This document shows positions 1 to 2,983 of a stretch of DNA of 56,703 nucleotides, piece after piece. Numbering within the stretch: position 1 is the first letter of the stretch; each line of letters begins with the position of its first letter. The notes beneath the pieces are model-generated. The model was not told the DNA's origin and made no database searches. It was given only the letters and a program-made list of their open reading frames with translations. The translations under genes and the position numbers were made by a program. The DNA lies in the NCBI GenBank assembly GCA_015066005.1, contig SVPF01000011.1, positions 1 through 56,703 of the forward strand. Reading direction: 5' to 3'. Source of the DNA: Oscillospiraceae bacterium. Lineage in GTDB: Bacteria > Bacillota > Clostridia > Oscillospirales > Acutalibacteraceae.

Positions 1-56
1 ACGGCTGTTGGCAGTGGCTTGACGGTAAATGGCCTTGGGAATATAAGGAGGTATAA
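1..56 (+). CDS. cotJB: CotJB spore-coat protein, C-terminal end only (partial)
   Basis: Only the last 17 codons are inside the window, read in the frame starting at base 3 and ending at TAA 54-56. The peptide GCWQWLDGKWPWEYKEV has the tryptophan-rich, PWPWE-like tail I associate with CotJB of spore formers. The next gene begins six bases later with the recognisable N-terminus of CotJC, which is the normal cotJB-cotJC order, so the two assignments support each other. The AGGAGG serving cotJC lies in the last codons of this gene. CotJB is a small component of the inner spore coat. Call rests on a short segment plus context. Confidence 0.7.
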   Translation, partial: GCWQWLDGKWPWEYKEV

Positions 57-61
57 TTTTT

Positions 62-169
62 ATGTGGCAATATGAAAAGAAATTACAGTTTCCCGTAAAC
101 ATTAAAAACCGCAACCCCAAATATGCACAAATCATAATAAGCCAATACGGCGGTGCATATTGTATTTAG
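62..169 (+). pseudogene. cotJC: truncated CotJC (manganese-catalase-like spore-coat protein), 35 codons
   Basis: An ATG at 62, preceded by AGGAGG, opens a frame whose start MWQYEKKLQFPVNIK and following NPKYAQIIISQYGG match the well-conserved N-terminus of CotJC. Intact CotJC is a roughly 190-residue ferritin-fold manganese-catalase family protein. Here similarity stops right after QYGG (about base 154), where family members continue PDGEL..., and TAG follows at 167-169. None of the three plus-strand frames downstream restores the family sequence. The gene is therefore broken, with the breakpoint around 152-156, just before the tail-to-tail lysis-type cassette. Whether an insertion or a deletion did this cannot be seen here. 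Confidence 0.75.
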
Positions 170-283
170 ATATAAATACCAATAAACATTTAACAGTGTT
201 ATAATAACGCACTCAATGCATTGTCGCAATACTTTTTTGTAATATTCCAGTATCTAACGCCCTTACATTATAATATATAGTAA

Positions 284-319
284 AAACACCGCCCATTCTC
301 TTTTGAATGAGCGGTGTTT
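284..319 (-). terminator. intrinsic terminator of the sigma/endolysin/holin cassette
   Basis: The arms AAACACCGC (284-292) and GCGGTGTTT (311-319), extended inward by CATTC/GAATG, form a strong hairpin. On the minus strand it is followed by a T run, and it sits 7 bases past the holin stop. It could also stop plus-strand transcripts arriving from cotJ. Bases 170-283 hold nothing else I recognise. Confidence 0.75.
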
Positions 320-325
320 ATTATA

Positions 326-553
326 TTATTCCTTAATTTCGGGTAATCCTGCAAATGAGGTTAAAATTGAATAGATAAACGCTACTGCCGAAGCGGACAG
401 CACCATAGTCCAGTTAACCTCACTTATAAGCGCGCCAACAGTTATAAGGGAAGCCGCAGTTTGTGCAAAGGTCTTTACCGCACGAATTCCTGCAGCCTTT
501 AACCATTTAATTGCTTTCTTTTGGCTTTTAAGCCACTGAATAATTTTTTTCAT
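326..553 (-). CDS. small phage-type holin (r1t-like family)
   Basis: A 75-residue protein with a lysine-rich cytoplasmic N-terminus (residues 1-22, KKIIQWLKSQKKAIKWLK), then two hydrophobic segments at about 25-46 and 49-68 separated by a short turn containing NW. Size, the AVKTFAQTA segment and the LTSFAGLPE tail resemble r1t-type holins of Firmicutes phages, which form membrane pores that release or activate peptidoglycan hydrolases. The ATG follows the endopeptidase stop by two bases, and its AGGAG lies inside the end of that gene, so the two are translationally coupled. Being last in a sigma-factor-led cassette without other phage genes, it may serve protein release (as TcdE/UviB-type holins do) rather than phage lysis; that is inference. 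Confidence 0.75.
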   Translation of the reverse strand: MKKIIQWLKSQKKAIKWLKAAGIRAVKTFAQTAASLITVGALISEVNWTMVLSASAVAFIYSILTSFAGLPEIKE

Positions 554-555
554 TT

Positions 556-1290
556 TTATTTCACTCCTAATAATTTTTTCCAGCTTTCAGGCCCTACACA
601 GCCGTCGGGTGTAAGACCTACAAGCTTTTGCCAGTTTATAACAGCAGTGCGGGTGTTTTTACCAAACTTGCCGTCTACTGCTACACCAGCCGCACGCTGA
701 ACAATTTTTGTAAGGCTTTTATATTTATATATCGCACGCTTTTTGCAAACTGCCTTTTTGGCAACGGTTTCACATTCGCTTCCCCACTTACCGTCGGCGC
801 CATATTTTTCAAATTTAAAGCCGTCATCAATGGCGGCAAGCTGCCAATCCTTAACTTTATTTGGTGTGTTGTCAAATTCCTTCACGCCTTCAAGGTAAGG
901 TGCAGGGTCAACATATTTTCCGTTAACATTCACATCAAAATGAAGGTGCGCCCCCGTTACATTACCTGTAGCCCCCATATAACCGAGGACCTGTCCCTTT
1001 AAGACCTTGTCCCCTGCCTTTACGGTGCGGCTGCCCTTTTTCATATGTAAATAACGGGTGTAATTGCCGTTACCGTGGTAAAGCCTTACATATTCCCCCG
1101 CTGTTAGTGAATACTTTGAAATTTTAACCTCGCCGTCGGCAAAGGCGATAATATAATCAAGCGTTGCGCCTTCGCCAACCAAATCAATACCGTTGTGCAT
1201 TTGCTTTTTGCCCCAAATGGTGCGCATACCAAATGGGCTTGTTACCTTGTGCCCGCCTTTTCTTAAAACGGGATTTTTATACTTTGCCAT
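556..1290 (-). CDS. M23 (LytM-type) peptidoglycan endopeptidase with C-terminal peptidoglycan-binding domain
   Basis: A 244-residue cell-wall hydrolase. The M23 zinc site is complete: H32 and D36 (HNGID), H82 (RYLHM) and the HLHFD motif with H115 and H117. A PG_binding_1-type repeat follows at about 185-240 (AVDGKFGKNTRTAV...). No signal peptide or membrane segment is visible, so export would need the adjacent holin, as for a phage endolysin. The start is placed at ATG 1290 because AAGGAGG lies about 9 bases upstream; a longer frame beginning at 1320 would add MFGIIRRNVT in front of it with no ribosome site. The start overlaps the preceding small gene by 14 bases. Inferred role: cleaving cross-link peptides during lysis or release. 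Confidence 0.88.
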   Translation of the reverse strand: MAKYKNPVLRKGGHKVTSPFGMRTIWGKKQMHNGIDLVGEGATLDYIIAFADGEVKISKYSLTAGEYVRLYHGNGNYTRYLHMKKGSRTVKAGDKVLKGQVLGYMGATGNVTGAHLHFDVNVNGKYVDPAPYLEGVKEFDNTPNKVKDWQLAAIDDGFKFEKYGADGKWGSECETVAKKAVCKKRAIYKYKSLTKIVQRAAGVAVDGKFGKNTRTAVINWQKLVGLTPDGCVGPESWKKLLGVK

Positions 1291-1471
1291 TGTTACATTC
1301 CTCCTTATAATTCCAAACACAGCGTTTTAAATTATCGTAAATATTTTGTTTCGATTTTTTTGCCGCTTCAACCGCATTTTCGAAAATAAAAAACGCCCCC
1401 GACTGTGATTTAATATCATCCCAAGCGTTTCTTACGCGAAAAATTTTCACATCACACGAAGTATGCTTCAT
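1277..1471 (-). CDS. small 64-residue protein with a SPOR-like 'RVRNAWDDIKSQSGAF' segment
   Basis: A short soluble protein. Its core FRVRNAWDDIKSQSGAF followed by a helix ENAVEAAKKS resembles the small domain (usually YRVRKSWDDAKSQIGAF...LENAKK) that Firmicutes often attach to cell-wall amidases, possibly a substrate- or wall-binding unit. Here it is free-standing. Its ATG overlaps the end of the sigma-factor gene by 20 bases and its stop overlaps the endopeptidase start by 14 bases; a GGGAGG lies about 11 bases upstream. The double overlap suggests it is translated as part of the cassette. It could be a detached wall-binding accessory of the endopeptidase. Function is not established. Confidence 0.6.
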   Translation of the reverse strand: MKHTSCDVKIFRVRNAWDDIKSQSGAFFIFENAVEAAKKSKQNIYDNLKRCVWNYKEECNNGKV

Positions 1472-1994
1472 AATTTTGCAACGCCTCCCTTAAAATTACC
1501 AAAGCCTGATTTTTAGTTTTGTTAACCGCTTGTCGCGAAATGTTAAAGCGGGCCGCAATTTCGGCAATGCTGTACCCGTAAACAAAATGGTAAATAACAA
1601 TTATTTTTTGCATTTTGTTAAGCTGTTCCATACCCTGTGCAAAACAAAAGCGGTCATCCAACTCTTCATTACAGCCACAGCAGCCCTCCAACAAATTTTC
1701 ACACAAGCTTTGCGATTTTGCCCTTGCGGTTAAAAGCGTAATGTACCTGTTTTTAATAGATACCGCAATATATCTTTTTAAATCATCCCCGTCATCGTCG
1801 GGAAATTTAGAAAGCCTTATGTTATACATAAGCTCAATTAAAAAAAGCGTAAGCTCGGATGAGGCGTCCTCATAATGAAGCTTAGCGGCATAAAAGCTTA
1901 TAAGCTTTTTAAATTCGTCAAAAACCAACGGAAATGCCGACATATCCTGATTTTTAACCCTTTTTACAAGCGATTTTAATAAAAAATTTTGCAT
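1452..1994 (-). CDS. small alternative sigma factor, TcdR/UviA/BotR-like
   Basis: A 180-residue sigma-70 family protein. Region 2-like helices lie at about 20-75 (FDEFKKLISFYAAKLHYEDASS..., LTLFLIELMYNI) and a clear region 4 helix-turn-helix at about 145-172 (YSIAEIAARFNISRQAVNK). The compact size and the LHYEDA...LTLFLIEL pattern fit the group that includes TcdR, BotR, TetR and UviA of clostridia, which turn on toxin or bacteriocin genes and a linked holin. ATG 1994 is chosen because AAAGGG sits 9 bases upstream; an in-frame TTG at 2012 is an alternative. It heads a four-gene overlapping cassette with an endopeptidase and a holin. Autoregulation is likely by analogy but not shown. Phage late-gene sigma-like activators are the main alternative. 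Confidence 0.75.
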   Translation of the reverse strand: MQNFLLKSLVKRVKNQDMSAFPLVFDEFKKLISFYAAKLHYEDASSELTLFLIELMYNIRLSKFPDDDGDDLKRYIAVSIKNRYITLLTARAKSQSLCENLLEGCCGCNEELDDRFCFAQGMEQLNKMQKIIVIYHFVYGYSIAEIAARFNISRQAVNKTKNQALVILREALQNYEAYFV

Positions 1995-2196
1995 GGTCAC
2001 CAACCCTTTCAAAAATTACACACTAATCGTTCAATGGGTTTGTAAACCAAGACCGCCCTTTTTTTGTAAAAATTTCCCATTTTGCGAAAATGTAAGTGCA
2101 ATTCTAATGAAAAGGATGACACTTTGTTGAAAAATGGAGTAAAATGTCATTTTTTGGGAGTATATAGCAATAAATACGTGAATTTTAATGTAAATA

Positions 2197-2290: not shown

Positions 2291-2983
2291 ATGAGAATTG
2301 CTATTTGCGGTGAAGAAGGCTCGACTGCCATAATTTTAAAACAAATGCTTTATATGTTTTCAAACTATAAAAAAATCGGCTTTGTTGTGGATATTTTTAA
2401 AAACTCAGCCAAACTGTTGGCTTCAAAGCAAAGCTATGCCCTGATTTTTGTTTCATTTGAAAGCGAAAACGGGAAAAATACAGCTTGGAACCTATATAAT
2501 TCGAATTTAAAAACGCCTGTAATTATTTATTCAGAAAACCGCTGTCACGCGGCGGATGCTTTTAAAATTAACGCATATTATTTTTTGCAAATACCGCTGT
2601 CACAAAAGATGCTGTTTGATATGCTGGAAGGCTTTTTTGTTTCTTACTTTTCAGCTCCCCTGCTTATAAGTGATGGCTTTGAAAGTGTTTGCATAAATAT
2701 AAGTGAAATACTTTATTTGGAAGCCTGCAACAAGCACTGTATTATACACCTTGTGGATAAAACAGTTCATTGCAACAAAACAATGGCAAGGGTATTTGCC
2801 GTTTTACCAAAAAACCGCTTTATAAAGGTAAACCGTTCAATTATAATAAATTTAGATTATATCAGCCGCTTTTGCAGCGAATATATTATTTTAACAAATA
2901 ACGAAGCTCTTTACCCAAGCCGCCATTTTTACAAGGGCTTTAAGCTTGAATACTACCGGATAAAAGCCCCCAAAATACCATAA
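2291..2983 (+). CDS. LytTR-family transcriptional regulator with a degenerate receiver domain
   Basis: A 230-residue protein with an N-terminal receiver-like fold (about 1-120) and a C-terminal LytTR DNA-binding domain (about 130-225; EILYLEACNKHCIIHLVDK, then FIKVNRSIIINLDYI). In active receivers the phosphoacceptor Asp sits in a LD-I motif; here the aligned stretch is IFVSFES, with Ser in its place. The acidic DD pair near the N-terminus is CGEEG, and the conserved Lys before Pro is replaced (FLQIPLS). It is therefore probably phosphorylation-independent. It is transcribed away from the sigma/endolysin/holin cassette and shares its upstream region, so it is the obvious candidate regulator of that cassette. 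No histidine kinase is adjacent. Confidence 0.8.
   Translation: MRIAICGEEGSTAIILKQMLYMFSNYKKIGFVVDIFKNSAKLLASKQSYALIFVSFESENGKNTAWNLYNSNLKTPVIIYSENRCHAADAFKINAYYFLQIPLSQKMLFDMLEGFFVSYFSAPLLISDGFESVCINISEILYLEACNKHCIIHLVDKTVHCNKTMARVFAVLPKNRFIKVNRSIIINLDYISRFCSEYIILTNNEALYPSRHFYKGFKLEYYRIKAPKIP

What the first reader, a model, noticed from the sequence alone, without database searches (positions are those of the whole stretch)
284..1994. Self-contained sigma factor / wall-hydrolase / holin cassette outside any prophage
Seen: four overlapping minus-strand genes (TcdR/UviA-like sigma factor, 64-aa wall-domain-like protein, M23 endopeptidase without signal peptide, r1t-type holin) closed by a terminator, with no capsid, tail, integrase or repressor genes nearby. 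Known: in C. difficile and C. perfringens a TcdR/UviA-type sigma factor sits next to a holin (TcdE, UviB) and drives toxin or bacteriocin expression and release. Inference: this could be a controlled lysis or release module, possibly for mother-cell lysis, bacteriocin release or altruistic lysis, with cargo encoded elsewhere.
Basis: partly seen in the sequence, partly recalled or inferred. Interest (0 to 1): 0.72.

Follow-up and report, generated by a model that had tools for sequence, protein, structure and literature searches.

The report
Likely gene-transfer-agent lysis switch
The four genes look like the lysis-and-release arm of a scattered, virus-derived DNA-packaging machine kept by a genus of gut bacteria, switched on by the kind of sigma factor that some clostridia use to make and release toxins.

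Summary
The four genes are real. To the right lies ordinary chromosome; the left is unresolved, because the contig starts at window base 1 beside a cut cotJC, and bases 1-1313 match (93.5%) the lysis end of a prophage-like region at cotJ in a relative. The gene set is not confined to prophages: a TcdR/UviA-type sigma gene occurs in 25 of 61 genus genomes, 23 of 25 with a divergent LytTR gene, 14 of 25 with a wall hydrolase behind it. Sigma-type promoters (TTTACA-N16/17-CTTTYT) precede sigma, unlinked phage-tail-fibre operons (one in this genome) and, in some relatives, a zinc-ribbon/HTH regulator operon. The genus also keeps a compact terminase-capsid-portal-nozzle cluster without integrase or replication genes (56 of 70 genomes), under purifying selection; sigma was found only in genomes that have it (28 of 28, against 28 of 42 without sigma). 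This content resembles FpGTA, the podovirus-like gene transfer agent reported in Faecalibacterium in 2026; I saw no regulator described for it. Best reading: the cassette is lysis arm and switch of an FpGTA-like agent. Particles, packaging, lysis and binding of regulators are untested.

The parts
1452..2012 (-). TcdR/UviA-type sigma factor (start ATG at 1994 or TTG at 2012)
   Evidence: Sigma70_r4_2 E 3.6e-9; BotR model TIGR03209 E 4.4e-8 but far below its cut-off, 33 of 138 bits; relatives in 25 of 61 genus genomes
1277..1471 (-). 64-aa stand-alone protein resembling a domain of phage endolysins
   Evidence: no Pfam family; 38-40% identity to parts of annotated endolysins of 4 Ruminococcus phages; conserved behind sigma in 10 of 25 loci
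556..1290 (-). M23 endopeptidase with peptidoglycan-binding domain (endolysin)
   Evidence: Peptidase_M23 E 7.3e-25, PG_binding_1 E 4.3e-9
326..553 (-). r1t-type holin
   Evidence: Phage_r1t_holin E 9.1e-14, phrog_443 holin E 1e-14
284..324 (-). terminator-like inverted repeat closing the operon
   Evidence: read by eye; not folded or scanned
2018..2046 (-). promoter-like site of sigma: TTTACA kept at -35, -10 diverged (GTGTGT) from the CTTTCT of other clades
2291..2983 (+). divergent LytTR regulator, receiver part without an assigned family
   Evidence: LytTR E 2.7e-16; next to sigma in 23 of 25 loci
62..169 (+). cut-off cotJC (35 codons), likely prophage attachment scar
   Evidence: Mn_catalase 1.3e-5, just below its cut-off; identical 35-residue ORF at a prophage-like end in G001
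1..1313 (.). segment collinear with the lysis end of a prophage-like region at cotJ in G001
   Evidence: 93.5% identity, no gaps, 1313 nt

Best explanation
The cassette is the lysis arm and switch of a dispersed, gene-transfer-agent-like system. A LytTR regulator turns on a TcdR/UviA-type sigma factor that also feeds back on its own gene. Sigma transcribes the wall hydrolase and holin behind it and unlinked operons for phage-like tail fibres; in some relatives it also transcribes a zinc-ribbon + HTH protein. That HTH protein is taken to act at the box GTCGGTGAATGTCG before a conserved TerS-TerL-scaffold-capsid-portal-adaptor-nozzle cluster. Capsids fill with host DNA and take on fibres; M23 endolysin and r1t holin lyse the producing cells and release them. 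Shown: genes, conserved arrangement, promoter sites, co-occurrence, purifying selection. Inferred: every binding event, assembly, host-DNA packaging, lysis. In the window's own genome a sigma-type site was seen before the fibre operon; its structural cluster has the box, and its HTH operon has another, operator-covered promoter, so a direct sigma-to-capsid link is not shown there.
For: Divergent LytTR in 23 of 25 sigma loci. Of 40 exact promoter sites in 70 genomes (reversed control 6), 30 lie in sigma-bearing genomes: 13 before sigma, 8 before fibre genes, 4 before the HTH operon, 5 elsewhere. Matrix test: fibre upstream regions 14 of 25 in sigma-bearing genomes against 0 of 9 without sigma (p 0.004). 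G000 fibre operon: TTTACA-N17-CTTTTT. Cluster-type portal in 56 of 70 genomes; sigma only with the cluster (28 of 28 against 28 of 42, p 4e-4); HTH protein with the cluster 52 of 56 against 2 of 14. Box in 28 of 70 genomes, reversed control 0, in 19 of 28 lying 3.3-3.7 kb before the portal. Intact genes, dN/dS 0.04-0.16. 11 of 11 sigma genomes with no hydrolase seen behind sigma have an r1t holin elsewhere. Gene content as in FpGTA I and II.
Against: No particle, packaging or binding data. The window's own sigma promoter has a diverged -10 and its upstream repeats are weak (7 of 9). The exact box is absent from the window. HTH-operon promoters exceed the threshold in 8 of 23 sigma-bearing and 0 of 5 sigma-free genomes, p 0.28. 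28 cluster-bearing genomes have no sigma, so it is not essential. Genomes are related, so the co-occurrence p-values are too small. Sigma, LytTR and HTH distances follow the host only weakly (0.29, 0.18, 0.19). Low dS of TerS, TerL and capsid between G000 and G052 (0.07-0.28 against 0.56-1.16 for portal, adaptor, nozzle and GHL10) points to exchange of part of the cluster. No FpGTA sequence could be compared.
Confidence: 0.6

Rival explanations
1. A UviAB/TcdE-like release module with a soluble protein cargo: sigma drives collagen-like tail-fibre proteins (and in one genome perhaps an RHS protein) that lysis frees as bacteriocin- or adhesin-like agents; the capsid cluster is a separate system.
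For: Fibre genes are the commonest unlinked target; an RHS-repeat protein follows the holin in G056; some genomes have fibre and lysis genes in one small operon (L120, L123, L135).
Against: The fibre genes are tail-fibre-like, second and third genes of the G000 fibre operon resemble genes at a prophage end, and fibre domain and cluster co-occur (45 of 56 against 2 of 14). Box-type promoters serve fibres, lysis and cluster alike.
Confidence: 0.17
2. A decaying prophage remnant: M23 and holin are the end of a podovirus-like prophage at cotJC, joined by deletion or misassembly to an unrelated sigma gene.
For: 93.5% collinearity of 1-1313 with the prophage-like end in G001 and the cut cotJC; prophage end at cotJ also in G052.
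Against: The sigma-p64-M23 junction recurs in G052, G099 and (cut by a contig end) G027; genes are intact with dN/dS 0.10-0.16; the cassette of G052 stands between LytTR and DtxR-like genes, away from its prophage.
Confidence: 0.12
3. A phage-tail-like bacteriocin or capsid killing particle made from the same parts, without DNA transfer (PBSX-like).
For: Same parts list; PBSX analogy is raised for FpGTA by its authors.
Against: TerL and portal are conserved, and no sheath or long-tail gene was noticed by eye in the six clusters listed.
Confidence: 0.08
4. Mother-cell lysis at the end of sporulation.
For: cotJ genes adjoin in the window.
Against: cotJ adjoins here on a prophage-like segment, and cotJC35 found no match at the other sigma loci fetched; promoters are of the TTTACA type and the other targets are phage-like.
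Confidence: 0.03

Closest known systems
FpGTA of Faecalibacterium (PMC12946183, 2026; abstract, sections 9 and 26 and passages read)
   Same: Podovirus-like; one operon with TerS, TerL, scaffold, capsid, portal; second locus with fibre, receptor-binding protein, holin, endolysin; no replication genes
   Different: Here fibres and lysis are further split, and lysis genes can sit behind a sigma factor; promoters and regulators are proposed; no particles shown; sequences not compared
UviA-UviB of Clostridium perfringens and TcdR-TcdE of C. difficile
   Same: Group-5-type sigma next to a holin; TTTACA -35 element (PMC4031146, passages read)
   Different: r1t holin plus endolysin instead of BhlA-type holin or toxin; divergent LytTR; cargo is phage-like fibres rather than toxin or bacteriocin (partners recalled)
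PBSX of Bacillus subtilis (recalled)
   Same: Domesticated phage with sigma-like regulator and XhlA/holin/lysin genes
   Different: PBSX is one contiguous long-tailed element; this is dispersed and short-tailed by gene content
LytSR-LrgAB of staphylococci (recalled)
   Same: LytTR-type regulator controlling holin-like genes
   Different: No sigma factor or endolysin in that operon; LytTR here acts, by inference, on sigma

Membership tests
TcdR/UviA group-5 sigma factors | sequence similarity to the group | tested here: inconclusive
   BotR model TIGR03209 E 4.4e-8 over 29-165, 33.2 bits against a cut-off of 138; a more distant form beside a BhlA/UviB-family holin in Sedimentibacter
TcdR/UviA group-5 sigma factors | TTTACA-type promoters, including its own | tested here: met
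   exact TTTACA-N15-18-CTTTYT before sigma in 15 of 25 loci, 16-17 spacer; the window gene itself keeps only the -35
UviAB/TcdE-type release module | sigma next to a holin | tested here: met
   window, and 12 further loci among the 25 with a holin match behind the hydrolase or at the expected place
UviAB/TcdE-type release module | toxin or bacteriocin cargo under the sigma | tested here: not met
   exact-motif targets are sigma, fibre and HTH operons; one RHS gene behind a holin in G056
FpGTA-like gene transfer agent | TerS, TerL, scaffold, capsid, portal cluster without replication or integration genes | tested here: met
   G000 and five more clusters listed, families; capsid and portal in 19 of 19 fetched clusters, TerL in 18 of 19
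FpGTA-like gene transfer agent | separate locus with fibres and lysis genes | tested here: met
   G000:C24 fibre operon, window lysis genes; joint fibre-lysis operons in L120, L123, L135
FpGTA-like gene transfer agent | long-term inheritance with the host | tested here: inconclusive
   TerL 0.74, capsid 0.56, portal 0.80 rank correlation with RuvB, n=17, but low dS of TerS, TerL and capsid between G000 and G052 suggests exchange
FpGTA-like gene transfer agent | particles carrying random host DNA | not testable with these tools
   needs particle purification and sequencing
FpGTA-like gene transfer agent | sequence homology to FpGTA proteins | not tested
Complete prophage | integrase, repressor and structural genes contiguous with the cassette | tested here: not met
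   none seen to the right in the window or around L031 and L145; left of the window not visible; one IMG/VR contig has phage-like genes beside LytTR-sigma (L263)

The most novel reading that the evidence does not exclude
A sigma/holin module of the toxin-release type, with a LytTR input, has been recruited as the lysis and fibre switch of a dispersed podovirus-like gene transfer agent across a genus of gut Clostridia, with repeated rewiring of modules between a phage late-promoter box and the sigma promoter. It would be the first regulatory circuit proposed for an FpGTA-type agent, as far as my searches show.
Probability: 0.52. Interest if true: 0.88.

Novelty: new variant of a known kind. Interest (0 to 1): 0.76.

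Why it matters
Gene transfer agents in Gram-positive gut bacteria were reported with experimental support only recently, and in what I read of that report I saw no description of how they are switched on. If the reading holds, a switch known from clostridial toxin genes controls cell suicide for DNA release in gut bacteria, the predicted promoters make the regulon directly testable, and shared promoters offer a way to find scattered parts of such agents that searches for contiguous prophages miss.

Tried and rejected
Rejected: chance ORFs (conserved order, low dN/dS); assembly chimera as source of the sigma-M23 junction (recurs in G052, G099, G027), although the window's own join to cotJC is seen in this assembly only; in it the DtxR-like and cytidylate-kinase-like genes lie on G000:C51 beside another gene. 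Sporulation lysis found no support. A first promoter model had wrong geometry and was replaced; in the second, sigma genes slipped into the 407 controls (at least four of the five best scorers), which raises the threshold, and one of 17 training sites (L043) looks misplaced. In one search, 2 of 11 sigma-free fibre loci and 2 of 25 sigma-bearing activator loci could not be located and were not scored. The 10 exact motif sites in 9 sigma-free genomes and the 12-base sites were not followed up, except where they coincide with sites above. Sigma was searched directly in 61 of 70 genus genomes; of the other nine, G099, G101 and G106 are positive, and six are called negative from the LytTR search and only. 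The sigma frame of G106 is split into two ORFs in L203. In G032 the contig ends just behind sigma, so absence of a hydrolase there is not a finding. The split of portals into prophage type and cluster type rests on a score gap (644 against 622 bits), and some of the 56 are fragments. Phage and plasmid collections gave only 28-32% sigma relatives; around two of three faecal contigs and one plasmid no lysis genes were noticed. PDB search with the 64-aa protein: none. Pfam Phage_holin_1 in the own genome: none. Of three viral contigs with the box, one (L425) has it inside a long gene. No structure was predicted. Many gene names (rodA, DtxR, nnrD, integrase, sugar transferase) are by eye from sequence, with no family search.

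Full report
1. The observation. Family scans give a sigma-region-4 protein, a 64-aa protein without a Pfam family, an M23 peptidase with a peptidoglycan-binding domain and an r1t holin. The window is contig G000:C5 from its first base, in a 1.97-Mb genome of 53 contigs, 88% complete, so nothing to the left can be seen. Bases 62-169 encode the first 35 residues of CotJC, preceded by the end of cotJB.

2. Relatives. The sigma protein has clear relatives (E 3e-25 or better, the window included) in 25 of 61 genus genomes; of 38 genomes of other genera 5 gave weak matches (E 9e-4 to 2e-6). Of the 25 loci, 23 have the divergent LytTR gene and 10 the 64-aa gene by tblastn; 14 have a wall hydrolase behind sigma, of M23 or Amidase_3 kind, partly judged by eye. 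The 11 genomes in which none was seen all have an r1t holin elsewhere (52 of 70 genus genomes have one). In GTDB contigs the 36 loci found are mostly uncultured gut Clostridia, largely from ruminants and other herbivores, plus distant forms in Sedimentibacter and Terrisporobacter and a few weak matches. One Sedimentibacter locus has a receiver-LytTR protein, sigma and a BhlA-family holin. Viral contigs gave one clear relative and one weak one; the first has phage-like genes and an integrase-like gene beside LytTR-sigma-M23-holin (by eye).

3. The left edge. Window 1-1313 aligns without gaps at 93.5% to G001:C3, where the same M23, holin and cut cotJC close a run of phage-like genes; the match stops 23 nt before the M23 start. 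G052 has a similar run at cotJ and, separately, sigma-p64-M23-holin between LytTR and a DtxR-like gene. The window's M23 is 95.5% identical to the G001 copy, 85.7% to the G099 cassette and 78.7% to the G052 cassette. I infer an older sigma-lysis cassette (also in G099, and up to the contig end in G027) whose M23-holin part recombined here with a prophage end at cotJC; a misassembly of that last join cannot be excluded.

4. The cargo. Before sigma an exact TTTACA-N15-18-CTTTYT site lies in 15 of 25 loci, 49-52 nt before the called start where one was called; others have near variants, and the window keeps only the -35. TTTACA is the -35 element of TcdR-related group-5 sigma factors (PMC4031146, passages). 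TTTACAAA-N14-CTTTCT occurs 40 times in 29 of 70 genomes, against 6 for the reversed pattern. Thirty sites fall in 20 of the 28 sigma-bearing genomes: 13 before sigma, 8 before tail-fibre-like genes, 4 before a zinc-ribbon + HTH operon, 5 elsewhere; ten fall in 9 of 42 genomes without sigma and were not inspected. The fibre genes share a 150-residue N-terminal domain, often followed by collagen-like repeats and varied ends, with hits to tail-fibre and unknown PHROG families. The domain occurs in 47 of 70 genomes, in this one on G000:C24 behind TTTACA-N17-CTTTTT. With a matrix trained on sigma promoters, 14 of 25 fibre upstream regions of sigma-bearing genomes exceed the 99th percentile of 407 control genes, 0 of 9 in sigma-free genomes (p 0.004; against controls 6e-16). 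Of the other 11, three (G001, G016, G101) have a CTTACA variant, which the sigma promoters of G001 and G016 share (that of G101 was not read); seven carry the box of paragraph 6; one (G039) a variant of it. For the HTH operon the figures are 8 of 23 and 0 of 5 (p 0.28).

5. The structural cluster. A prophage portal protein found relatives in 63 of 70 genomes; seven have only the prophage type, leaving 56. The six clusters listed hold TerS-like, TerL, capsid, portal, adaptor-like and nozzle-like genes, usually a scaffold-like gene, a GHL10 lipoprotein and an XhlA-like gene; no integrase, repressor or replication gene was noticed, and G000, G052 and G055 share the neighbours on the TerS side. 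In 19 fetched clusters capsid and portal are present in 19, TerL in 18; the other is a 3-kb contig. TerL, capsid and portal identities rest. Between G000 and G052 dN/dS is 0.04-0.12 for these genes and 0.10-0.16 for LytTR, sigma, p64, M23 and holin, against 0.03 and 0.07 for rodA and tsaE. Distances of TerL, capsid and portal follow host RuvB (0.74, 0.56, 0.80; n=17; p 0.0005), those of sigma, LytTR and HTH protein weakly (0.29, 0.18, 0.19). Against strict vertical descent, dS of TerS, TerL and capsid (0.07, 0.25, 0.28) is well below that of portal to GHL10 (0.56-1.16), so parts seem to be exchanged.

6. The box. GTCGGTGAATGTCG occurs 56 times in 28 of 70 genomes, its reversal never. In 19 of the 28 a site lies 3.3-3.7 kb before the portal on the same strand, that is before TerS. 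It or a near variant also stands before fibre operons and before lysis genes in L129, L130 and L133. Of three viral contigs with box and ATAAT, L424 has it between a sigma-region-4-like gene and terminase-like genes, L426 behind a similar gene, L425 inside a long gene. The HTH protein of the genus resembles the L424 protein over 57 columns (hhalign 94%, E 2e-7), has strong matches (E 1e-15 or better) in 54 of 70 genomes and co-occurs with the cluster (52 of 56 against 2 of 14). Its operon has a sigma-type promoter in G010, G036, G039, G056, G059, G042, G058 and G030 (over the threshold) and by eye in G106, G032 and G023; in G000, G052, G015, G055, G001, G016, G101, G027, G021 and G099, as in four of five sigma-free genomes shown, it has a TATAAT-type promoter among repeated ACGNAATTNCGT-like operators. 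So sigma may command the activator in one set of lineages and only fibres and lysis in the other, to which the window belongs.

7. The input. Between LytTR and sigma, 14 of 23 loci have 9-nt repeats with 8 or 9 matches 21 nt apart and 8 of 23 at 20 nt, against 0-3 of 23 at each of the 21 other spacings tried; the window reaches 7 of 9. This is the layout of LytTR sites as I recall it.

8. What is known. FpGTA of Faecalibacterium has an operon with TerS, TerL, portal, scaffold and capsid and a second with fibre, receptor-binding protein, holin and endolysin, about 40-nm particles with about 9 kb of DNA, and cultures that lyse late (PMC12946183; abstract, sections 9 and 26, passages). I saw no regulator of it there, but did not read the whole text. 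Searches: gene transfer agent with Clostridia 34 papers, with Firmicutes/domesticated/terminase 4, with gut and Oscillospiraceae 2, with Faecalibacterium 9, with LytTR 0; UviA/UviB/TcdR/holin 1; UviA/bacteriocin/sigma factor/perfringens 16. Only PMC12946183 and PMC4031146 were opened.

9. Verdict. A sigma-controlled lysis module with cargo elsewhere is the right idea; the cargo appears to be the fibres, and in some lineages the late activator, of an FpGTA-like agent. Particles, packaging and all regulatory contacts remain predictions.

Noticed in passing
window 1-169: End of cotJB and a cotJC cut after 35 codons; the same cut ORF closes a prophage-like region in G001 (L122), so cotJC may be a prophage attachment site in this genus.
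   Followed up: partly
L237, L238, L241, L242, L193, L194, L192: Fibre operons stand next to sugar-transferase or other polysaccharide genes (named by eye) in seven genomes, as if fibre type and surface sugars were linked.
   Followed up: no
L262 2259-2345 (-); L193, L194, L198: Leaders of the fibre operons hold a hairpin with a GGAGG-like loop; three of four folded stretches have z-scores of -3.2 to -4.1, one 0.2, but the stretches include the -10 element.
   Followed up: partly
L190, L197: A DinB-like polymerase gene, and in L190 a LytR_cpsA_psr protein, follow the zinc-ribbon/HTH operon.
   Followed up: no
L050 4476-5884; L057: A second, weaker sigma paralogue lies divergent from a LexA/CI-like gene (by eye) in G023 and G032.
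   Followed up: no
L053 13213-15729: A long RHS-repeat protein, running off the contig, follows the sigma-amidase-holin genes of G056.
   Followed up: partly
L307, L310: Sedimentibacter has a LytTR protein divergent from a sigma gene followed by a UviB/BhlA-like holin, so the trio is wider than this genus.
   Followed up: partly
L049 5682-9422: Phage-tail-like genes directly behind sigma in G054, to the end of the contig.
   Followed up: partly
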